In this document: in pieces, positions 1 to 13,170 of the stretch | How positions within the stretch are numbered: position 1 is the first letter of the stretch | Layout of the letters: every line of letters starts with the position of its first letter | Source: Nanobdellota archaeon | GTDB taxonomy: Archaea; Nanobdellota; Nanobdellia; Parvarchaeales; Parvarchaeaceae | DNA length: 13,618 bases | Assembly: GCA_021818905.1 (NCBI GenBank) | Contig: JAKASS010000019.1 | Location: 1 to 13,618 of the forward strand | Direction of reading: 5' to 3' | Notes under the pieces: generated by a model | Database searches by the model: none | What the model saw: the letters and a program-made list of their open reading frames with translations, nothing else | What the model was told of the DNA's origin: nothing | Translations under genes and position numbers: made by a program

Positions 1-250
1 GATCTACATCGAAATATTTATGGATCACGACGTCGCGTAAACCTATAAAATCTTTTATTATTTTATCATCCGAAAACTCCGGAAAATGTAGGGCCATCTG
101 CTTAAGAGCTTCGCCTATCTTTTCTAGGTTAAACACAATGATGTCTTCTCGATTTTTAGAAGCTAAGAATTGTGCTTCGGAGCCCAGATTATTTTCTATT
201 TGTTGTATGAAACTTAGGATTTCTGATACGTATAGTTTTACATCTCTCAT
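1..250 (-). CDS. hepT: HepT-like HEPN ribonuclease toxin, 3' end outside window
   Basis: Minus-strand reading frame starting with ATG at 250-248 and still open at base 1, giving the first 83 residues. The visible end contains RDVVIHKYF, which is the HEPN RX4HXY motif typical of HepT/DUF86 proteins; Arg and His are the RNase active-site residues and the Tyr is the residue that the partner antitoxin AMPylates in characterised HepT/MntA pairs. The start overlaps the stop of the nucleotidyltransferase gene by 4 bp (ATGA), so the two are translationally coupled in the usual antitoxin-toxin order. Family assignment rests on the motif and on the partner. The missing C-terminus prevents a length check. 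Confidence 0.88.
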   Translation of the reverse strand, partial: MRDVKLYVSEILSFIQQIENNLGSEAQFLASKNREDIIVFNLEKIGEALKQMALHFPEFSDDKIIKDFIGLRDVVIHKYFDVD

Positions 251-663
251 AACGCCCCTACTCCTTCTTTGTCGACACTGTCTTTTAATAATGGATTAAG
301 GTAATCCCATGAAACTAAATCGACCTTGATCCCTAGTTTTCCTTCCAATTCTTTCCAAAGACGCATATAATCCAAACCATCCATTTTGTCGTAATCAAAC
401 TCCACCAATATATCTAGATCGCTGTCTTTATGCTGTTCTCCCCTTGCGAAGGAACCAAAAATGACCGCTCTTTTGATGTGATACTTGGAGAGTATGGGCC
501 CGATTATTTCCTTTATTTCTTTTAGACTGTCTTTTCCTTTTACATTTTGTGCCCAGGCAGGATTTTTTAGATTTGCCCTGCACACCGGACAAACTATATA
601 TTTTCGTTTGACCTCGTTTCTCGCGGTGTATTTCCACTCATATCCACAAGATCCACATTTCAT
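247..663 (-). CDS. mntA: MntA-type minimal nucleotidyltransferase antitoxin with N-terminal zinc ribbon
   Basis: 138 aa. Residues about 65-118 are a minimal nucleotidyltransferase: GSFARG at 70-75, SDLDIL at 81-86 giving two metal-binding Asp (D82, D84), and a third Asp at D115 in VDLVS. MntA-family enzymes transfer AMP from ATP to a Tyr of the HEPN toxin and so neutralise it. The gene precedes and overlaps the HepT gene by 4 bp, as expected for this module. Unusual is the first 30 residues, with C3-x2-C6 and C25-x2-C28, a compact zinc ribbon that ordinary MntA proteins of about 100 aa lack. It may bind DNA for autoregulation or aid recognition of the toxin; this is inference. A TATA box about 27 bp upstream makes ATG 663 a leaderless start. 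Confidence 0.88.
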   Translation of the reverse strand: MKCGSCGYEWKYTARNEVKRKYIVCPVCRANLKNPAWAQNVKGKDSLKEIKEIIGPILSKYHIKRAVIFGSFARGEQHKDSDLDILVEFDYDKMDGLDYMRLWKELEGKLGIKVDLVSWDYLNPLLKDSVDKEGVGAL

Positions 664-2125: not shown

Positions 2126-2815
2126 ATGAAAAGTCAAGAACTGCTCGAAATTCTAAAGGAAAATGTTCTTAATGTATTCTCTCCTCTAGACGTTTATAGA
2201 ATAACCAGAAAAACAAAACATTATGTAAATCTGCTCCTATATAGGATGACAAAAAAGGGGCTGATAATGAGAATAGAACGGGATAAATATGCACTTAAAA
2301 TCGCGCTCTACATAATCGCATCCAACATAATCCGCCCGTCTTACGTTAGCTCAATGTTTGCATTTTCTTATTATGGCTTGACTACCCAATTGCCCGCCAA
2401 AATAGATGTGATATGTACAAAGCAACACAAAACACTGGATTTGGAAGGCATCAAGATAAGATTCATTAAGACTGACAAAACGCGTGTTTTTGCATTCCTT
2501 AAGGATTCAAACAATGCATTTGTAGCCGAACCAGAAAAGGCAGTCATAGATTCACTTTATTTTAATACCCTTTCTTTTGGTTCAATAAGCGAAGCGGTTT
2601 CTATCGGTCTCAACAAGAACGTGCTAAACGTCAATAAATTGAACGATTATGCGCTGCGAATGAAAAATACAGCTCTTATGAATAAACTTGGCTTTTTACT
2701 GGCAGATAATGGCATAGATGATAAAAATATATATCCCGATATCTCCAAAAATTATGTAAAATTATCAAAGAGCGGCGCAAAAATAGACAAAAGGTGGAAG
2801 ATCATATATGGCTGA
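2126..2815 (+). CDS. abiEi: AbiEi-like antitoxin, transcriptional regulator
   Basis: 229 aa. The N-terminus (about 1-56) is a winged helix: helix ELLEILKENV, then SPLDVYRITRKTKHYVNLLLY with the recognition helix, then a wing LIMRIERDKYAL. The middle and C-terminal part (about 60-190) has the shape of the AbiEi C-terminal domain, including a YYGLT motif, repeated short strands and VAEPEKAVIDSLYF, the characteristic EpEkALlD-type motif of AbiEi/DUF2971-like antitoxins. AbiEi proteins bind their own promoter and antagonise the AbiEii nucleotidyltransferase without a stable complex (type IV). It overlaps the toxin gene by 8 bp. A TATA box at -27 supports the start. Good match in context and order; the subfamily is not resolved. 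Confidence 0.85.
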   Translation: MKSQELLEILKENVLNVFSPLDVYRITRKTKHYVNLLLYRMTKKGLIMRIERDKYALKIALYIIASNIIRPSYVSSMFAFSYYGLTTQLPAKIDVICTKQHKTLDLEGIKIRFIKTDKTRVFAFLKDSNNAFVAEPEKAVIDSLYFNTLSFGSISEAVSIGLNKNVLNVNKLNDYALRMKNTALMNKLGFLLADNGIDDKNIYPDISKNYVKLSKSGAKIDKRWKIIYG

Positions 2816-3608
2816 AATAGACAAGTGGCGGAATTATTCTTCGATGCTTAACTTCCCAAGGCCCGAGAACGCAGAAAAAGATTTTTTACAGGAACTCTTA
2901 CTTAAGGAAATATATGCGAAAACCGAAGGCATAGTATTTAGAGGCGGCACGGCACTGTCAAAATTTTATGGTTCGGGCAGATTCTCAGAAGACTTAGATT
3001 TTGTAATGGCCGATGAAAGCTATACTAAACGTGTAGAAAACGTGCTCTCTAAAATAGAGGCCGGCATAAAAAATGTTGGGAACTATTTCAAAGCAAATTT
3101 TTGCAAGACCGCATATAAAGACATGTTCGAATATTCAATAAGAATAGAAGGACCTCTCTTTGTCAGCTCTGGGAATCCCGCTGCACTACAGAAAGTATCA
3201 ATAGACTTGAACTCCAGAGAAATCGTATCTTTGAAACCTAGACTGGTGTTCCGTAACCCAATGTATGAAAATATGAGAAACTACACCATATTAGTTGAAG
3301 AATTGGAAGAGTTGCTTGCGGACAAGGTAAAAGCATTGATAGAAAGGCACGCAAAAAGAAAGGGGAGCTACGTAAGGGATTTGTACGACATATGGTCTGT
3401 TTTGAAGAAATATGACACAAAGATAAATCTCGATTTAGTAAGGGAGAAAATGCAGAGGTATGGAAAAAAGGAGTTTTCGTTGCTTGACTTTAAAACGGCT
3501 TTAAAGGACGCCAAAGACACATGGGAAGTGGAAATCAGTGCGGTCATGAGGACCTATCCGACATACGATGACGTAAAGAGCACAATAGAAAAGAAAGCCC
3601 ACCTCTAA
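2808..3608 (+). CDS. abiEii: AbiEii-like nucleotidyltransferase toxin
   Basis: 266 aa. Diagnostic motifs of the AbiEii/AbiGii nucleotidyltransferase superfamily are all present: GGTALSK at 46-52, RFSEDLDF at 58-65 with the two metal Asp, a central Asp in SIDL (D133), LADKVKAL at 170-177 with the catalytic-type Lys K173, and RDLYDIW at 190-196. Characterised members modify tRNA 3' ends with nucleotides and stop growth or abort phage infection. The start ATG lies inside the abiEi 3' end (8-bp overlap). All motifs look intact, so the enzyme is probably active. The gene ends only 8 bp before a truncated transposase gene, marking an old insertion or recombination boundary. Confidence 0.9.
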   Translation: MAEIDKWRNYSSMLNFPRPENAEKDFLQELLLKEIYAKTEGIVFRGGTALSKFYGSGRFSEDLDFVMADESYTKRVENVLSKIEAGIKNVGNYFKANFCKTAYKDMFEYSIRIEGPLFVSSGNPAALQKVSIDLNSREIVSLKPRLVFRNPMYENMRNYTILVEELEELLADKVKALIERHAKRKGSYVRDLYDIWSVLKKYDTKINLDLVREKMQRYGKKEFSLLDFKTALKDAKDTWEVEISAVMRTYPTYDDVKSTIEKKAHL

Positions 3609-4250: not shown

Positions 4251-5522
4251 TCATTTCAGGTCGTTCCTTAGGATCTCTTCTATCTTTGTAAGCAGAGAAG
4301 GGGAGAAAGCTATGTTCAGTTCCCTCGTCCTGCCGTAACGACCGTTGCTTTTTACCCTAGACATTATCAATGAATTGTAATCCATGTCCGCTATAAGATC
4401 GGAGATCCTCCTGAACGTAAGCGCTTTCAATCCGTATCTTTCAGCTATCTTTATGTAAGCATCGTATACTTCGCCGCTATAGACCTTTCCTAATCTTTTA
4501 CTCCTGGCGACCACTATTATCGAATAAAGTATCGACTTGCTTTGTTTTGTCATCGACTTTATAATCTCTTCGGTTATGTTCTGTTCAAGAATTGCTGAAG
4601 CTTTATCGAGGTCTTCTTCTGTCAACCTGCTTCTTCCGCTTTGCTGCGCGTTCTCTCCGGCGACCCTCAAAAGGTTCAGGGCTTTCCTGATATCGCCATG
4701 TTCCTGTGCCGCAAGCGCCGCACATTTCTTGACGACACCCTCATCCATGGCGTTTTCGTAGAAAGATTCGCCGACTCGGACGTTTAGTATGTCCTCTATT
4801 TCTATCGCATTGTAAGGTTTGAACACAAGTTCGACGGGGCTCAAAGAGCTTTTTACCCTCTGGTCCAGCGAGGCCTTAAGATCCGTATTGTTGGATATGC
4901 CTATTATCGATATCTTTGCATGCTTCATTGATTCGTTCAGCCTAAGCAGGCTGTAAAGCACGCCATCACCTGCGTTTTGTATGAGTTTCTCTATCTCATC
5001 TAATATGATTATTATATATTTGTCCTCAATGTCCACTGCCGACACCATCTTCTTGTAAAGCTGGTTCACAGAAAGGCCGCTCGTAGGTACCTTGACGCCG
5101 AAAAACGTACACAGATTGGAGATAAGCCTGTACTCTGTGTTGTTGTTCTCAAGTCTGCAGTTTATATATATAGGAAGTATGTTTACGTTCTTGTCCATCG
5201 CAGTGGAAGCCAGGTTCTGTGCGATGTATCTAGTAACAAGGGATTTTCCTGTGCCTGAAAATCCATAGATCAGCATGTTCGACACTCTCTCCATCAAAAG
5301 GCTCGGCGCGAGGATGTTTGATATTTCTTCTATCTCCGTATCACGGTGCGAAATAGCCCCAGGCACGAACGATGATGAAAGGACCTCTTTATTTTTGAAT
5401 ATCCTTTTCTTGAGAAGGAATTGATTGAATATCTCTTTCGGATTTATTTTTGCTTTTTCGTTATCAGATGAAGTTTTGGAAGACGCGATTTTTAGATTGC
5501 CATCAAAAACTTCTTTAGTCAT
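4251..5522 (-). CDS. cdc6: Orc1/Cdc6 replication initiator ATPase
   Basis: 423 aa, a usual length for archaeal Orc1/Cdc6. AAA+ core: Walker A GFSGTGKS at 87-94, Walker B IIIILDEIEK at 170-179, sensor 1 around GISNNTD at 208-214, DQRVKSSL with a probable arginine finger R222, and sensor 2 GDIRKALNLL at 276-285. The C-terminal 320-423 is the winged helix that contacts origin boxes, with RRISDLIADM as recognition helix and a basic wing NGRYGRTRE. These proteins bind ORB sequences and load MCM. The gene reads away from an eight-box ORB-like array starting about 95 bp upstream of its start, the classical archaeal cdc6-next-to-origin layout. A TATA box about 38 bp upstream implies a leader near 11 nt. 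A 10-bp inverted repeat follows the stop. Confidence 0.95.
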   Translation of the reverse strand: MTKEVFDGNLKIASSKTSSDNEKAKINPKEIFNQFLLKKRIFKNKEVLSSSFVPGAISHRDTEIEEISNILAPSLLMERVSNMLIYGFSGTGKSLVTRYIAQNLASTAMDKNVNILPIYINCRLENNNTEYRLISNLCTFFGVKVPTSGLSVNQLYKKMVSAVDIEDKYIIIILDEIEKLIQNAGDGVLYSLLRLNESMKHAKISIIGISNNTDLKASLDQRVKSSLSPVELVFKPYNAIEIEDILNVRVGESFYENAMDEGVVKKCAALAAQEHGDIRKALNLLRVAGENAQQSGRSRLTEEDLDKASAILEQNITEEIIKSMTKQSKSILYSIIVVARSKRLGKVYSGEVYDAYIKIAERYGLKALTFRRISDLIADMDYNSLIMSRVKSNGRYGRTRELNIAFSPSLLTKIEEILRNDLK

Positions 5523-6013: not shown

Positions 6014-6217
6014 ATGGAAAAAGAAAAAAGCGGAGAAAAATTCTCCACAGGAAATGCAGGACTCGACTTTGAGATGATCGATAATAAAATTTACAGGGAC
6101 GAAATGTTTTTCATCGAAACAGAAACACGTTCCAGAGGAAACGGTGGTGTAGGTGTCATCTCGATTAATTTGTTATCAATATTATTGCTTTCATATAATC
6201 TGGGGTCTTTATGCTGA
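6014..6217 (+). CDS. Possible 67-aa leader ORF of the operon, overlapping the origin
   Basis: Starts at ATG 6014 after a TATA box and ends overlapping the next start by 7 bp (ATGCTGA), as true operon neighbours do. The N-terminal half is polar; residues about 45-64 (GVGVISINLLSILLLSYNLG) are hydrophobic enough for one membrane segment. Against it: two ORB-like boxes (6044, 6130) lie inside, so part of its sequence (FSTGN, SRGNGG) is dictated by the boxes, and it resembles no family I know. It could be a real small membrane protein, a leader peptide for translational coupling, or a chance frame. Confidence 0.38.
   Translation: MEKEKSGEKFSTGNAGLDFEMIDNKIYRDEMFFIETETRSRGNGGVGVISINLLSILLLSYNLGSLC
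6044..6055 (+). promoter_or_regulatory. ORB-like box 7
   Basis: TCCACAGGAAAT preceded by TC, with a GCAGG stretch after it. It is within the possible 67-aa ORF. Confidence 0.6.
6130..6156 (+). promoter_or_regulatory. ORB-like box 8, extended
   Basis: TTCCAGAGGAAAC (6130-6142) followed by GGTGGTGTAGGTGT, the most G-rich tail in the array and close to a full-length ORB. It is within the possible 67-aa ORF. Confidence 0.7.
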
Positions 6218-7863
6218 AAGAATTTAAACTATCGATTTTTGTCAGCATCGCGTTCCTCTTGCTACTGTCGATGGCGGGGACAGCAAAAGCTGAGCAGATA
6301 ACCGGTAACTTCACGGTATCTTCCCACTATACTATGATGTCAAACCTTAACTATTCGGGATGGATAATCATAGAGAACGGAGGCAGCCTTAACCTAAGCA
6401 GCTACGAAGCACAGGCTAAAGGGATAATATTGGAGAATGGCTCTTCGCTTTATGTAATGAAAGCCTCGGGTCTTTTTGGTCTTTCTTATATCTACAATAA
6501 CGGGACTATTTACTATCACAGGAATATCCTCAACGTAACTTTCTTGTCGAATTATGGGAAGATAATCCACCAAAGCTGGCTTCATTTCTACAACAGTCTT
6601 CCTATGTCATATGGAGGTTCTGGGGGCGGCGGAGGCACAAACGGCGATGCCAGCGCCACGGAAGGCCTTAACACTAGGGTAAGTGGCGGTGCGGCGGGCG
6701 ATAACCCGGCAGGCGCCGGTGCAGAAGCTCCTCTTCTTGGGGATCTATCTTCGCCGATATTTAATGAGTCTATTTTGAGCGGGGCTTCGGGAGGCAACTC
6801 TTCATGTGAAGCTGGTTCCGAAGGGGCGTATGGTCTTATAATCAACACCTCTACATTTGAGAATTTTGGCTCTATCTTTAACCAAGGGGGATCTGCCGGG
6901 ACTCCCTGCTATAGTCCGGAGTACAATGGCGGCGGGGGAGGGGCGGGAGGAGGCGGCGTGCTAGAAATAGTGTTTTCTTCCATGTATCTAAACAAAGGAG
7001 TATACAACCTGAGCGGAGGAAGCCTAAACTCATATTATTTTAGCGATCCAGATGCCTTTTACAAAGGATGGGGCGGCGAAGGAGGCGCTGGGCAACTCGT
7101 CATCGTAAGGGTCGCGCATGACCCGGCCAGCGGGCAAAACACGACCGTAGCAAACGCCGCTTCAAACGCCTCGGTTTCGATCCCGATCTCAGCGCTTAGC
7201 TACATAAACAAGACCCTCGTCGACCTGACTTCCGAAATATCAGGTTATCAGGAGGCGATATCGGGTTACCAAGGTGAGATATATGCGCTGAACAAAAGTT
7301 ATCATGACGTCGAAGCTACGCTGTCTGGGGTCAACGACACGCTTTCCGGGTTGGTATCCAAGGACAGCGGTTATCAGGCGGAGATATCCGGCCTCGGCAC
7401 CCGTTACGGCGAGATACAATCGTCACTTTCTGACATTTACGACGAGGAAAGTCTGATCCAGAACCAGACGGCGCTTATCCAAGCCAAGGCCGCGGGCTAT
7501 AATTACACCGCAGGATTTTCTGGGCTGGAAGCGAGTGACAAGGCCATACTTTCCGGGTTGGCGTCTGTCGAAGACCAGGAGTACTGGATCCAGAGTGGAC
7601 CATCGAGCGATTATTACCGGTACACTTCAAACCTTTCGAATGGCACGATCTTTCTTGCAAATATATCGGGGCACGAAGACTACAGCGAAGCGCCTTATCT
7701 GCATGAGGATCTTGCGCCGGTCACGGTCGTAAGCAGCCCAAATTACTCGTTGTTCGGCAGGCAGCAACCGGCAGCAGACCAGCCGAGCATCCTTTCCGAG
7801 ATATATTCCGGGTTCGTGCAGGTCGTCACGTTCATACCCGACATGGTGGCTAGGGACGTTTGA
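6211..7863 (+). CDS. Secreted Gly-rich, coiled-coil surface protein
   Basis: 550 aa. Residues 1-27 are a Sec signal peptide (KEFK, hydrophobic core to about 22, cleavage after AKA). Residues 30-130 are rich in Tyr, Asn and NxS/T sites and short beta strands (IIIENGGSLNL, IILENGSSLYV), suggesting a repetitive beta fold. Gly-rich linkers lie at 135-145 and 240-249. Residues about 330-460 form a heptad-rich region with SGYQ repeats (344, 351, 386) spaced like a coiled coil. There are two Cys (199, 233) and no clear C-terminal membrane anchor or cell-wall signal. Many glycosylation sequons suit an extracytoplasmic archaeal protein. It overlaps the preceding ORF by 7 bp and is followed within 2 bp by the zinc-binding protein gene. 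It may form a surface fibre or adhesin serving the ATPase encoded downstream; family not recognised. Confidence 0.85.
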   Translation: MLKEFKLSIFVSIAFLLLLSMAGTAKAEQITGNFTVSSHYTMMSNLNYSGWIIIENGGSLNLSSYEAQAKGIILENGSSLYVMKASGLFGLSYIYNNGTIYYHRNILNVTFLSNYGKIIHQSWLHFYNSLPMSYGGSGGGGGTNGDASATEGLNTRVSGGAAGDNPAGAGAEAPLLGDLSSPIFNESILSGASGGNSSCEAGSEGAYGLIINTSTFENFGSIFNQGGSAGTPCYSPEYNGGGGGAGGGGVLEIVFSSMYLNKGVYNLSGGSLNSYYFSDPDAFYKGWGGEGGAGQLVIVRVAHDPASGQNTTVANAASNASVSIPISALSYINKTLVDLTSEISGYQEAISGYQGEIYALNKSYHDVEATLSGVNDTLSGLVSKDSGYQAEISGLGTRYGEIQSSLSDIYDEESLIQNQTALIQAKAAGYNYTAGFSGLEASDKAILSGLASVEDQEYWIQSGPSSDYYRYTSNLSNGTIFLANISGHEDYSEAPYLHEDLAPVTVVSSPNYSLFGRQQPAADQPSILSEIYSGFVQVVTFIPDMVARDV

Positions 7864-7865
7864 TC

Positions 7866-8495
7866 ATGGAAGAAGATATCAGCAAGCTGTACGAAGCGCT
7901 GCTTAAGCTGAACAAGAAAGTCTCCGAGCTCGACCAGCGCAACACGGAGATACAGGCAGCGATCTCCTCGATGAGTCCGCCGGCAATCGGAGAGGAGAAA
8001 CCTGTAATAGATCAGGAGACTACTATGCTCGATGCCTATAACATAAGCGGCTATAAGAGCCTGTCTTTGCCGGACGGCGGCTTCGTAAGATTAAAGTCCA
8101 GGTCTCTTTGCGTCAACGGAAGACACGTAGTAGACAGCACCGACAAGATGCTTTTTTGTTCGAAATGCGATGCGATAATCTGCACGGACCACCGCTATGA
8201 CCTTGACGAGACCGTCTGCGCCGGCTGTCTGGAGAAAAGGATAAGCGATTTCGACAGCATGAGCCTATATGTCCTTTTTGCGCTGGAGAACGGCATCTCG
8301 ATAAGGAAGCTCAGGAAGCGGCTGAACATCCCATGGAAAGAAATCGAAGCGGCGCTAGACAAGCTGCAGAAATCAAATTGCATCTTCAGGGACCTGCTCT
8401 TCAGGTACCGGATAAACATATACGGCGAGAGCGCGGTGGACACGGCCAAGCTGATAATGGACTTTTCTTTCCTGGAGCCGCCGGCAAAGGACTGA
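7866..8495 (+). CDS. Coiled-coil / B-box-like zinc / winged-helix-like protein
   Basis: 209 aa from ATG 7866; an in-frame TTG at 7860 overlapping the upstream stop would add two residues and is less likely. Residues 1-35 are a coiled coil. Residues 82-121 hold eight possible zinc ligands: C82, H87, C98-x2-C101, C106-x2-H109, C118-x2-C121, the spacing of a two-zinc cross-brace of the B-box/RING type. Residues about 130-200 are helical (SLYVLFALENGISIRKLRKRL, then IPWKEIEAALDKL) and look like a winged helix for DNA or protein binding. No signal peptide, so cytoplasmic. Gaps of 2 bp on both sides tie it to the surface protein and the ATPase, and it may be the adaptor of that complex. I know no named family with this architecture. 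Confidence 0.8.
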   Translation: MEEDISKLYEALLKLNKKVSELDQRNTEIQAAISSMSPPAIGEEKPVIDQETTMLDAYNISGYKSLSLPDGGFVRLKSRSLCVNGRHVVDSTDKMLFCSKCDAIICTDHRYDLDETVCAGCLEKRISDFDSMSLYVLFALENGISIRKLRKRLNIPWKEIEAALDKLQKSNCIFRDLLFRYRINIYGESAVDTAKLIMDFSFLEPPAKD

Positions 8496-8497
8496 GC

Positions 8498-10168
8498 ATG
8501 GAAACAGCCGACGATCTTCTGGCAGGGGTGATCCAGGCCATCGACAAGTACGGGAAATCTACGGACGTTTCCGGCATCGTGCGTCTTTTGGAGCGATATT
8601 CCAAGACGCCGAGCGACAACGGACGGGCGTTCCTTTTGCGCAGCATGCTGCTGAAGGTAGAAGCGATGCAAAGAAGGTCCCCCATGGCCTGTCCGGTCCA
8701 GGCGCCGGTCCCGGAAAGCATGGCGGACGGCGTGATTGCGGGCAGAGTGGTCCCCGGCGGGGCCGAGTTCAAGCTGTCAAAGACGGACCTGAACAGGAAT
8801 ATTTTGGTGGCGGCTTCCGTCGGTCACGGGAAGACCTCGTTGGTATATAACATACTAAGCAGACTCGGGGACGAAGGCCTCACCTACATGCTTTTTGATC
8901 TCAAGCGGGATTACCGCGCCCTCGCTTACGGCGACGACACTTTTTATTTCGATGAAAAGAACCTGAGGATAAACCCGCTCGAGCCCCCGCCCGGCGTGTC
9001 CAAGACGGAATGGGCAGTCCACTTCGCGGACGCCTTCTCGCATTCGTTCGCCCTTTTGATAGGGAGCAGAGATTTCCTTCTGGAGAAAGTCCTTGAACTC
9101 TATGAGAGCTGGACGGGTCCGGAAACGCCGTCTCTCATGGACCTGCTTTTGCTGCTGGAGACGACTACGGCAAGGAACGAATACCTAAAGGTCGTGAGAG
9201 GCAGGATAAAGGCTTTGGTCTCCTCCACGAAGGCTTTCAGTAGCAGGACCGGCATCTCTCTGCAGGGACTCGACAAAAGCAACGCCATATTCGGGATAGA
9301 CACTTTTGGTTTCGCCGAGCAGGGCTTCATAGTCTCGATAATGCTGTCGTATCTTTTTTACATGAACCTTTCCCAGGCGGAAAAGCGGGGCAAAGTCTAC
9401 AAGATAATCTGCATAGACGATGCTCATACGATACTCGACGTAAGAAAGGAAAAGGATTACGCACTCGGCATACCGCTGCTGCACCAAGTGATATCCAAGA
9501 TGCGCGAACTCGGCGTCGGCTTTATCTTTTCCGACCAACAGGCATCGTCGCTTTTGTCCAGCGTGATACAAAATTCCAACACAAAATTCATAGGACGGAT
9601 AAACCTGGCCGAAGACATCCCAAGGATATTCGGAGACAGGGCCGCGCCGGAAATAGGATCCGCCATCCAGAACCTAAAAGTCGGGGAGTTTTTGGCGCTG
9701 TCTCCGAGCGTCTCGCCTTATTGCGTGATAAAAGCGGATGCGGTGTCCATAGACAAAGACATCGATGCCGGGCTGATAAGCCTTAGGTCGAGGAGACTGG
9801 AAAAGACTTCTCTTCGCAGGGCAAAGACGCCAGCACCGGACGGCGTCGTCGCGCTGAAGAAAAAGATGACCTCCGTCCTGTCTGGAAAAGGTCTTGATTT
9901 CGATGACGACGGCTTCGGCCTCCTTGTAAGACGGGCGGGCGAATGTAAAAAGATCTACATGATATTTATGGCCACGATCGAAGACCTGTTCAGGCTTCTC
10001 GACACCAAATTCGACTTGCTCATAGACGTGGTAGAAGAAGGCACGGACAAGGAGGAGATGATCAAAAGACTGGGCTCCGCAGGGACCCTTAAGCCGTTTT
10101 TCAACCTGGACACCTTAAAGGTATGTTATCCAAGCGATTTTTCTTTGGGTGTCTTGGGTGAATGTTGA
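8498..10168 (+). CDS. HerA/VirB4-like (DUF87-type) P-loop ATPase
   Basis: 556 aa from ATG 8498, 2 bp after the previous stop; the frame is open further upstream, but that part is only antisense-like overlap with the neighbour. Walker A ASVGHGKTS at 106-114, Walker B YKIICIDDAH at 301-310, a polar Gln sensor SDQQASSLL at 345-353, and NTKFIGRI with a candidate arginine finger R367 match the HerA/FtsK/VirB4 translocase class, including the separate N-terminal domain (about 80-100) leading into NRNILVAASVGHGKT. The usual Asp-Glu of Walker B is Asp-Asp (D307, D308). The C-terminal 440-556 is an extra domain. Members are hexameric motors that move DNA or remodel proteins; here the partners are a secreted protein and a zinc protein, so a surface-linked transfer or assembly motor is one possibility. 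Confidence 0.85.
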   Translation: METADDLLAGVIQAIDKYGKSTDVSGIVRLLERYSKTPSDNGRAFLLRSMLLKVEAMQRRSPMACPVQAPVPESMADGVIAGRVVPGGAEFKLSKTDLNRNILVAASVGHGKTSLVYNILSRLGDEGLTYMLFDLKRDYRALAYGDDTFYFDEKNLRINPLEPPPGVSKTEWAVHFADAFSHSFALLIGSRDFLLEKVLELYESWTGPETPSLMDLLLLLETTTARNEYLKVVRGRIKALVSSTKAFSSRTGISLQGLDKSNAIFGIDTFGFAEQGFIVSIMLSYLFYMNLSQAEKRGKVYKIICIDDAHTILDVRKEKDYALGIPLLHQVISKMRELGVGFIFSDQQASSLLSSVIQNSNTKFIGRINLAEDIPRIFGDRAAPEIGSAIQNLKVGEFLALSPSVSPYCVIKADAVSIDKDIDAGLISLRSRRLEKTSLRRAKTPAPDGVVALKKKMTSVLSGKGLDFDDDGFGLLVRRAGECKKIYMIFMATIEDLFRLLDTKFDLLIDVVEEGTDKEEMIKRLGSAGTLKPFFNLDTLKVCYPSDFSLGVLGEC

Positions 10169-10470: not shown

Positions 10471-11751
10471 ATGGCCTCGATGTCTGACATAAAGTCTGCA
10501 ATAATAGAAAGGGAGCGCGAGATATCGGATATATTCGATAAGGAGAACATAATAAATCGCGAATTGAAGCTAAACAGAAAGGACATCGGGTTCGGTGCCG
10601 CAAATATAATCACGGGACCAAGGAGATCAGGCAAGTCGATTTTCGCTTTTCAGCTATTCAAAGGAGAAAAATTTGGATATGTAAATTTTGAGGACGAAAG
10701 ACTGAAAATAGACGGTCAAGAACTTAATAATGTCTTAGAGGCGATATACTCTATAAAAGGGAAAACCAAAAATCTGGTCTTTGACGAAATCCAAAATGTG
10801 AACGGCTGGGAGCGATTCGTTTCTAGGCTAGCGCCTTCCAACCGCGTCGTCATAACCGGGAGCAATTCTAAATTAATGAGCAAAGAACTAGGAACCTTCC
10901 TTACGGGACGGCACATAGATCATCTACTTATGCCTTTTAGCTTCCGGGAATTGCTTGAATATAAGGGGCTAAGATTCAGCGAAGAAGAATCATACCTGAC
11001 AGAAAAGAAAGCCGTATTAAAAAAAGTCATGGGGGAGTTTTTGATCAAAGGAGGATTTCCGCTCAGTTACGGCAAAGGCAAGCAGTATTTAGTAAATCTT
11101 TATAGCGACATCATAGAAAAAGACATAATCAATAGATATAACATAAAGTACGTCTCAAAGATCAGAGAATTGATTAAATACGCCCTCTCTAACTTTTCTG
11201 GCGAGATAACCTTAAACAAGCTTAAAAATATTTTCAATCTAAAAGGGGACCATACAGTAGATAATTGGTTAAAGTACGCGGAAGACGCATATCTTCTTTT
11301 TAAGCTAGAGAGATTCTCTTTTAAACTTAAGGAAAGATACATCGCACCCAAAAAGATCTATTCTATCGATACCGGCCTTTTGAACGCGATCCTGTCCGAA
11401 TCTGCAGAAAGCAAGGGCAGGCTAATGGAAAACGTCGTCGCTATAGAATTGCGCATACGAAAAAATTATTTCGAGCCCGACTTAGAGTTATACTATTGGA
11501 AGGATCACGTTGGCAACGAAGTAGACTTTGTATTAAGGTCCAAAAACACTGTAAAACGGCTTATTCAGGTGACTTATGCCAGTAGCAATCTAGACCTAAA
11601 GCCGAGAGAAACAAAGGCGTTGCTTAAGTCTGCCAATGAACTAAGATGCAACGACCTTCTCGTCATAACCTGGGATTACGAAGCAGAGGAAAAGGTAAAA
11701 GGAAAGAAGATAAGGTTCGTACCGTTGTGGAAATGGCTCCTGAACCTTTAG
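10471..11751 (+). CDS. AAA_14 / DUF4143 family ATPase
   Basis: 426 aa. N-terminal ATPase: Walker A GPRRSGKS at 49-56, Walker B NLVFDEIQ at 101-108, sensor TGSNSKL at 129-135, followed by the LTGR turn and FSFREL that are typical of AAA_14 proteins. The C-terminal part (about 210-370) matches DUF4143 with a degenerate PD-(D/E)xK-nuclease-like pattern: E326, GNEVDFVL at 348-355 and IQVTY at 365-369. The family is very common in archaea and bacteria, often near mobile or toxin-antitoxin genes; its biochemical role is not settled. Start chosen because the TATA box is 26 bp upstream; MSDIK at codon 4 would be an alternative. It is a single-gene unit and stands between the putative operon and the Fic region. 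Confidence 0.92.
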   Translation: MASMSDIKSAIIEREREISDIFDKENIINRELKLNRKDIGFGAANIITGPRRSGKSIFAFQLFKGEKFGYVNFEDERLKIDGQELNNVLEAIYSIKGKTKNLVFDEIQNVNGWERFVSRLAPSNRVVITGSNSKLMSKELGTFLTGRHIDHLLMPFSFRELLEYKGLRFSEEESYLTEKKAVLKKVMGEFLIKGGFPLSYGKGKQYLVNLYSDIIEKDIINRYNIKYVSKIRELIKYALSNFSGEITLNKLKNIFNLKGDHTVDNWLKYAEDAYLLFKLERFSFKLKERYIAPKKIYSIDTGLLNAILSESAESKGRLMENVVAIELRIRKNYFEPDLELYYWKDHVGNEVDFVLRSKNTVKRLIQVTYASSNLDLKPRETKALLKSANELRCNDLLVITWDYEAEEKVKGKKIRFVPLWKWLLNL

Positions 11752-12033: not shown

Positions 12034-12174
12034 CTAAGCGAGGTAATGCCGGCACTTGGGGCAAAACATCACGGAATTCTTTGAATTTTTTGTTACATTC
12101 TCTTCGTGATTAGAACAATCGCTGCAATTGCAGAACACCTGCCGCCCCGCGTCATCATTACAATCTTCGCACAT
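12034..12174 (-). CDS. 46-aa Cys-rich zinc-finger-like protein
   Basis: A short minus-strand gene inside the 540-bp gap, 46 codons plus TAG. Metal-binding residues are densely placed: C2-x2-C5, C15-x-C17-x2-C20, H23, C38-x2-C41, H43. Nine candidate ligands allow two zinc sites, one ribbon formed by the first and last CxxC pairs. The last part, MFCPKCRHYLA, looks like the second half of a classic zinc ribbon. Chance preservation of this spacing is very unlikely. A TATA-like GAATAAATAG (12201-12210 region) is about 31 bp upstream of the ATG. It is read away from the Fic gene. Role unknown; a small DNA-, RNA- or protein-binding regulator is plausible. Confidence 0.62.
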   Translation of the reverse strand: MCEDCNDDAGRQVFCNCSDCSNHEENVTKNSKNSVMFCPKCRHYLA

Positions 12175-12260
12175 AACTATAATATCAGACCCGACGCCGA
12201 ATAAATAGGTTTTATACCGTCAATGGATTTCCTACCTCTACATATTTATATAAATAAGAA

Positions 12261-12270
12261 TATTTAAATA
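12261..12270 (+). promoter_or_regulatory. TATA box for the Fic gene
   Basis: TATTTAAATA centred about 26 bp upstream of ATG 12292. It fixes this ATG as the start over nearby ATGs at 12278 and 12288, which lie in other frames. Confidence 0.6.
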
Positions 12271-12291
12271 TATGTAGATGCCAAGAATGAC

Positions 12292-13170
12292 ATGGTATCG
12301 ATAAAGAGGAAGCGGGGGGGCGGAAAGACATATTATTACCTGCGGCACACTTACAGGTCAAACGGCCGGGTGCTCGCGAAAGAGAGATATATTGGTTCAA
12401 AGATGCCGAAAAACGCGGACGAGATGAAAAAGGACTTTCTATTTGAGATATACGGCGCGAAGTGGTTTTCCAGATTCGAGGAAATCCGCAAGAACCACCT
12501 GAAAACGCTGCGCGCGATGCCGGAATCAGAGAACGAAAAGAATATCGATACCTTCGCGATAAGATTCACGTATGATACCCAGCGTATCGAGGGATCCACT
12601 ATGACTCTGCGAGAAACGGCGAACCTGATAGAAAATGGTATTTCCCCACGTAACAAACCTGTCCATGATATAAAGGAGGCCGAGGCCAACCAAAGGGTAT
12701 TCAAAGAAATGCTGGCGACGGGGAAAGACCTATCGTATAATCTCATACTAGACTGGCATAGGAAACTTTTCCTCCAGACAAAGCCGGATATAGCGGGTAA
12801 ACTGAGAGTTTCTGACGTAAGGATGTCCGGAAGCAAGTTCGTACCTCCGACGCATCTTGAAGTTTATCCACTAATGAGAAGATTTTTCGGCTGGTACGAA
12901 AAGAACAGGACGACGATGAATCCGGTAGAACTCGCTGCCATGGTACACTTGAAATTAGTTACCATACGTCCGTTTGCCGACGGCAACGGGAGAATAAGCC
13001 GTCTGGCGATGAATTTCGTCCTGAATAAACGCGGTTTTCCCATGCAGAATATCGAGTATGAGAACAGGGACAGTTATTATAAAGCGCTCGAAAGGGCGCA
13101 GACAAAAAAAGATGATTCGATATTTCTAGTCTGGTTCTTCAAGAAGTACGTAAGGGAGAACTCACAGTGA
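12292..13170 (+). CDS. Fic-domain protein with N-terminal inhibitory motif and altered active site
   Basis: 292 aa. Residues 1-40 are a basic hairpin-rich domain (KTYYYLRHTYRSNGR, AKERYIG) seen at the start of many archaeal Fic proteins. T96QRIEG101 fits the inhibitory motif (S/T)xxxE(G/N), N-terminal to the Fic core as in class II Fic. The core motif is IRPFADGNGRISR at 225-237, where the canonical form is HPFxDGNGRxxR: the catalytic His is Arg226. The codon is CGT, one transition from CAT. All other loop residues (D230, G231, N232, G233, R234, R237) are intact. Fic enzymes transfer AMP or other groups to hydroxyls of target proteins, and the His is the general base, so this copy should be inactive or have a changed activity. 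Leaderless promoter, no partner gene on the same strand. Confidence 0.9.
   Translation: MVSIKRKRGGGKTYYYLRHTYRSNGRVLAKERYIGSKMPKNADEMKKDFLFEIYGAKWFSRFEEIRKNHLKTLRAMPESENEKNIDTFAIRFTYDTQRIEGSTMTLRETANLIENGISPRNKPVHDIKEAEANQRVFKEMLATGKDLSYNLILDWHRKLFLQTKPDIAGKLRVSDVRMSGSKFVPPTHLEVYPLMRRFFGWYEKNRTTMNPVELAAMVHLKLVTIRPFADGNGRISRLAMNFVLNKRGFPMQNIEYENRDSYYKALERAQTKKDDSIFLVWFFKKYVRENSQ

What the first reader, a model, noticed from the sequence alone, without database searches (positions are those of the whole stretch)
12292..13170. Fic protein with catalytic His replaced by Arg
The motif reads RPFADGNGRISR where HPFxDGNGRxxR is expected. Every phosphate-binding residue and the inhibitory T96xxxE100G101 motif are intact, so the protein should still bind nucleotide but lack its general base. 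One CAT-to-CGT transition explains it. It may be a recently inactivated toxin, a binding-only regulator, or a variant with another chemistry.
Basis: partly seen in the sequence, partly recalled or inferred. Interest (0 to 1): 0.6.

Follow-up and report, generated by a model that had tools for sequence, protein, structure and literature searches.

The report
Archaeal Fic protein lacking catalytic histidine
A small DPANN archaeon carries an otherwise perfect AMP-transferring (Fic) enzyme whose one essential histidine is an arginine, most likely a recently switched-off copy, although a survey shows that other microbes have kept Arg-type Fic proteins for a long time.

Summary
Window 12292-13170 (+) encodes a 292-aa class II Fic protein reading R226-PFADGNGRISR, with T96xxxE100G101 and all other motif residues intact. 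It is the only Fic gene found in the genome. Its nearest relatives (72-73% identical, same genus and same family) read HPFADGNGR, and 47 of 49 aligned family members have His. Across 371 genomes of its phylum the Arg motif occurs in 2 and the His motif in 210. On a tree of the archaeal subfamily, Arg arose three separate times, each time as a lone tip beside a His sister. In the Thaumarchaeal kin three of the four Arg copies are broken genes. The window's gene is intact, sits on an unaccelerated branch and is predicted to fold like human FICD (pLDDT 94). Best reading: an isolated, recent loss of catalysis in a patchily inherited, self-inhibited Fic gene, leaving a protein that should still bind nucleotide. 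A sequencing error is not excluded. The surprise lies elsewhere: about a hundred Arg-motif Fic stretches turned up in other species, some forming clades under purifying selection (Fibrobacter, Niabella, Gemmatimonadota, Oscillospiraceae). So Arg is not always decay, and I found no description of this in the papers held here.

The parts
12292..13170 (+). Class II Fic protein, 292 aa, catalytic His replaced by Arg
   Evidence: ORF; PF02661 72 bits; AlphaFold pLDDT 94.2, best PDB match FICD, E 4e-15
12967..13002 (+). FIC motif R226-P-F-A-D-G-N-G-R-I-S-R237; codon 226 is CGT
   Evidence: sequence; pattern hit at 12967
12523..12594 (+). Inhibitory helix (residues 78-99) ending in T96xxxE100G101
   Evidence: sequence and predicted helix H78-99
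12298..12396 (+). N-terminal three-strand beta element (residues 3-35), shared with the archaeal relatives
   Evidence: DSSP of the model; Y16, L17, Y33, L34, G35 nearly invariant in 49 aligned members
12258..12275 (+). TATA-box-like A/T run just upstream of the start, promoter by inspection only
   Evidence: sequence; not tested

Best explanation
The gene is a patchily inherited, self-inhibited (class II) Fic AMP-transferase of an archaeal subfamily, caught shortly after losing its catalytic histidine. Shown: the ORF is intact, the predicted fold and every other motif residue are kept, relatives have His, and Arg is a lone-tip change. Inferred: with Arg at 226 the protein cannot deprotonate the target hydroxyl (AMPylation) or protonate the leaving group (deAMPylation), so it is catalytically dead or nearly so. 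It should still fold, still bind ATP through GNGRxxR, and still hold E100 against R237. The likely route is that loss of a costly toxin-like activity was tolerated or favoured, with further decay to follow as seen in its Thaumarchaeal kin.
For: R is absent from all close orthologues. The tree needs three independent R changes, each with an H sister, and the window is in a 100/100 clade with two H orthologues. In Thaumarchaeal kin three of four R copies are broken: L135 has an internal stop, L121 has frameshifts, L136 is a 71-aa remnant. By a hand count R genes are broken in 3 of 5 and H genes in 3 of 44, Fisher p 0.01. In the window's own order fic is present in few of 32 genomes and one of them holds a broken remnant. 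The window genome has no other Fic gene to act as partner. FICD His363 is required in both directions (PMC8373988). Neighbouring genes are toxin-antitoxin types: AbiEi/AbiEii and HepT/MNT, which suits a flexible, toxin-rich region.
Against: There is no second lesion: no stop, no frameshift, and no excess of changes (4 of 52 otherwise invariant sites, against 3 of 51 and 4 of 52 in the two orthologues; branch 0.23 against 0.18 and 0.22 for the orthologues from the same node). The inhibitory motif is kept. Conserved Arg-type Fic clades elsewhere show that Arg can be compatible with long-term retention. The broken-gene association rests on small, unevenly sampled counts.
Confidence: 0.55

Rival explanations
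1. Functional pseudo-enzyme: the Arg-type protein is kept because it binds nucleotide or an AMPylated (or unmodified) target without turning it over, acting as a trap, competitor or regulator.
For: ORF and predicted fold intact with no rate acceleration. FICD H363A forms a long-lived trapped complex with AMPylated BiP (PMC8373988). BepC with a non-canonical motif acts by binding GEF-H1 (PMC8401265). Arg-type clades under purifying selection exist: Fibrobacter w 0.04-0.07, Niabella 0.09, Oscillospiraceae 0.08, Gemmatimonadota about 0.2-0.3; 56 of 56 sampled Arg ORFs are real Fic proteins.
Against: The window's Arg is a singleton with no Arg sister, and its genome has no His-type Fic whose product it could bind. 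In Arg-type proteins elsewhere the inhibitory motif is kept less often (42/81 against 71/85), whereas here it is intact, more like a fresh change. That comparison set is not matched.
Confidence: 0.22
2. Assembly or sequencing error, or a minority variant: the population has His.
For: The genome is a fragmented assembly (25 contigs) and the change is a single transition from CAT.
Against: The rest of the gene reads without frame or motif faults, and Arg at the same place recurs in unrelated genomes including isolates. Random error would rarely hit this codon.
Confidence: 0.13
3. Altered chemistry: Arg takes part in a different transfer or hydrolysis reaction.
For: Arg-type clades keep the anion-binding motif (though the search pattern imposed it). 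C. fetus Fic2, degenerate at the second Gly and last Arg, is still toxic (PMC5651007).
Against: Arg is a poor general base, and C. fetus Fic2 still needs its His (H184A is not toxic). Nothing in the window points to a new substrate.
Confidence: 0.06

Closest known systems
Human FICD/HYPE (PDB 6i7g, 4u04), class II Fic AMP-transferase and deAMPylase
   Same: Best sequence match (phmmer E 4e-25 over residues 70-270) and best fold match (E 4e-15, 27% identity); same T/SxxxEG inhibitory motif upstream and same motif apart from the His
   Different: His363 is Arg226 here; no TPR domain, instead a short N-terminal beta element; archaeal
His-type archaeal Fic orthologues in the same genus and family (L003, L005) and in Nitrosopumilaceae-type Thaumarchaeota (L285-L306)
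   Same: 72-73% and 48-57% identical; same N-terminal element (L005 is cut before it) and inhibitory motif
   Different: All have HPF at the catalytic position
Doc clade D2, His replaced by Gln (Khater and Mohanty 2015, PMC4454073)
   Same: A natural Fic/Doc group without the catalytic His
   Different: Gln not Arg, Doc-type NKR motif, a clade and not a lone tip
Bartonella BepC and other Beps with non-canonical motifs (PMC8401265)
   Same: Fic domain retained without canonical catalysis, acting by binding
   Different: Motif changes lie elsewhere; secreted effectors
Arg-type Fic clades found here (Gemmatimonadota, Fibrobacter, Niabella, Oscillospiraceae, Opitutia)
   Same: RPFxDGNGRxxR
   Different: Other Fic subfamilies; Arg shared across species; inhibitory motif often lost

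Membership tests
Fic/Doc family (PF02661) | Fic fold and significant match to the family profile | tested here: met
   72 bits against a 24-bit cut-off; AlphaFold model matches FICD and other Fic structures
Fic/Doc family (PF02661) | HxFx(D/E)GN(G/K)R with invariant catalytic His | tested here: not met
   R226 in place of His; the rest of the motif is met
Class II Fic (self-inhibited) | (S/T)xxxE(G/N) motif in a helix N-terminal to the Fic core | tested here: met
   T96xxxE100G101 at the end of predicted helix 78-99
Active AMP-transferase / deAMPylase | AMP transfer to, or removal from, a target protein | not testable with these tools
   No biochemistry available; loss predicted from the FICD His363 requirement
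FicTA toxin-antitoxin module (class I) | Adjacent small antitoxin gene carrying the inhibitory helix | tested here: not met
   No such adjacent gene seen among the ORFs listed; the inhibitory motif is in the protein itself
Pseudogene | Disrupted frame or relaxed constraint | tested here: not met
   Intact ORF, no excess of changes; a recent onset of relaxation cannot be seen

The most novel reading that the evidence does not exclude
Fic proteins with Arg in place of the catalytic His are a recurrent, naturally maintained class of pseudo-enzyme (or enzyme of another chemistry), and the window's protein is a new, independent recruit to it that works by holding nucleotide or an AMPylated target.
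Probability: 0.25. Interest if true: 0.6.

Novelty: new variant of a known kind. Interest (0 to 1): 0.33.

Why it matters
On its own the gene is a clean natural loss-of-catalysis variant, useful as a paired test with His-bearing orthologues. The wider result matters more: His is described as invariant in Fic proteins, yet Arg replaces it in many species, and in some lineages this has lasted long enough to be shared by diverged species under purifying selection. If those proteins bind but do not transfer AMP, they would be the Fic counterpart of pseudokinases, and automated annotation as 'adenylyltransferase' would be wrong for them.

Tried and rejected
The search for related loci with the single protein found nothing in genome contigs. 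Pairwise dS between the window and its orthologues is saturated, so dN/dS on the window's own branch could not be computed. H133N looked like a second loss of a conserved His, but that column is variable in the wider family, so it was dropped. A partner or antitoxin gene shared by the orthologues was sought and not seen in the two neighbourhoods listed: a ParE-type gene beside fic in L022, unrelated genes in L023. 'Arg is always decay' was rejected by the conserved clades. 'All orthologues have Arg' was rejected.

Full report
OBSERVATION. The ORF at 12292-13170 (+) is real: 292 aa, ATG start, one frame. It matches Pfam Fic with 72 bits. R226 (CGT) stands where the catalytic His belongs, followed by PFADGNGRISR; T96-QRI-E100-G101 is upstream. 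It is the only Fic gene found in the 944,665-base genome.

ORGANISM. The genome is small and its relatives are unnamed, but one same-class genome (G329) has a 17,020-base contig that appears to be the same record as JAJPEB010000010.1, a Woesearchaeota MAG. So the window most likely comes from a DPANN archaeon of that class.

ORTHOLOGUES. The closest relatives are G017 (same genus, 72%), G031 (same family, 73%, cut by a contig end) and G048 (same class, 54%); all read HPF. A search of 151 genomes in the family of a Nitrosopumilaceae archaeon gave many members, the closest 48-57% identical, nearly all His. In an alignment of 49 members, His is present in 47; the two exceptions are the window and L318. 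Within the phylum the Arg pattern is found in 2 of 371 genomes and the His pattern in 210.

TREE. A maximum-likelihood tree of 45 members needs three separate changes to Arg, and well-supported branches force all three. The window groups with the two His orthologues at 100/100 support. Its branch (0.23) is about as long as theirs from the same node (0.18 and 0.22). At 52 sites invariant in the other four relatives it differs at four, against three of 51 and four of 52 for the two orthologues. There is therefore no sign of general decay. Synonymous sites are saturated, so a very recent relaxation would be invisible.

ARG AND BROKEN GENES. Of four Arg copies in the Thaumarchaeal kin, one is intact (L112/L318), one has an internal stop (L135/L322), one is frameshifted (L121), and one is a short remnant (L136). 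Among His copies breakage is rare: by my hand count 3 of 44, including the remnant in G027 of the window's own genus. Fisher's test gives p of about 0.01. The counts are small and the Arg and His sets were gathered differently, so this is suggestive only.

ARG ELSEWHERE. A pattern scan of species-representative genomes for CGN-encoded RPFxDGNGRxxR stopped at its limit with 116 stretches, a minority of them in short frames that may be chance or broken. Among viral contigs there was one, against at least 120 with His. All 56 Arg ORFs scanned are Fic proteins. Several form groups across species. Lowest-dS pairs give dN/dS of 0.04-0.07 in Fibrobacter, 0.09 in Niabella, 0.08 in Oscillospiraceae and about 0.2-0.3 in Gemmatimonadota. 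In the order of one Gemmatimonadota genome, nearly all relatives whose motif could be read have Arg, with one Val and one His, down to less than 50% identity. Arg-type full-length ORFs keep the class II inhibitory motif less often than His-type viral ones (42/81 against 71/85, p 1e-5); the sets are not matched for ancestry. The Niabella Arg clade lacks the motif where its His relatives have SSQxEG.

STRUCTURE. AlphaFold gives pLDDT 94.2, with a three-strand N-terminal element, the inhibitory helix 78-99 and the Fic core. The best solved match is human FICD by fold and by sequence.

MECHANISM. From the literature, FICD needs His363 as general base for AMPylation and as putative general acid for deAMPylation; mutating it abolishes deAMPylation and yields a trapped complex with AMPylated BiP (PMC8373988). 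By analogy the window protein should be inert in both directions but able to bind. This is inference; no activity was measured.

CONTEXT. The contig is rich in toxin-antitoxin genes: AbiEi/AbiEii at 2126-3608 and a HepT/nucleotidyltransferase pair at 2-663. An AAA_14/DUF4143 ATPase precedes fic at 10471-11751. No antitoxin gene was seen next to fic. In G017 fic lies beside a ParE-type toxin gene; in G031 the neighbours are different again. Fic is thus a patchy gene with no constant partner.

LITERATURE. His is described as invariant (PMC4454073; PMC12409994). A His-to-Gln Doc clade is known (PMC4454073). Non-canonical Beps and C. fetus Fic2 have other motif changes. I found no paper in the held library on Arg at this position; subscription papers are missing from that library.

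VERDICT. A correctly observed, real-looking single-residue loss of the catalytic base in a class II archaeal Fic protein, most likely a recent inactivation. The recurrent and partly conserved Arg-type class across bacteria is the more interesting result and deserves its own study.

Noticed in passing
L060, L074, L085, L089, L092 and L365-L383 (Gemmatimonadota): A conserved clade of Arg-type Fic proteins, with one Val and one His member; the two such genomes scanned hold 13 and 10 Fic genes.
   Followed up: partly
L053, L056, L104, L105 (Niabella) and L359: Arg-type Fic clade that lacks the inhibitory motif kept by its His relatives.
   Followed up: partly
L048, L081, L094, L099, L130, L132, L133 (Fibrobacter): Arg-type Fic with dN/dS of 0.04-0.07, the strongest sign here that an Arg-type Fic protein is functional.
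   Followed up: partly
window 2-663 (-): HepT-like toxin and nucleotidyltransferase pair, cut by the contig end.
   Followed up: partly
window 2126-3608 (+): AbiEi/AbiEii type IV toxin-antitoxin pair.
   Followed up: partly
window 12034-12174 (-): 46-aa cysteine-rich ORF (zinc-ribbon-like) just upstream of and divergent from fic; no Pfam match.
   Followed up: partly
window 4251-5522 (-): Orc1/Cdc6 replication initiator on the same contig.
   Followed up: no
window 8333-10168 (+): HerA/CedD-like ATPase, below the Pfam cut-off, next to unmatched ORFs at 6211-8495.
   Followed up: no
L026 about 8937-9312 (-) (G027:C23): Broken fic remnant with stop codons and a degraded motif (IHPFGDGDGH) in a genome of the same genus.
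   Followed up: partly
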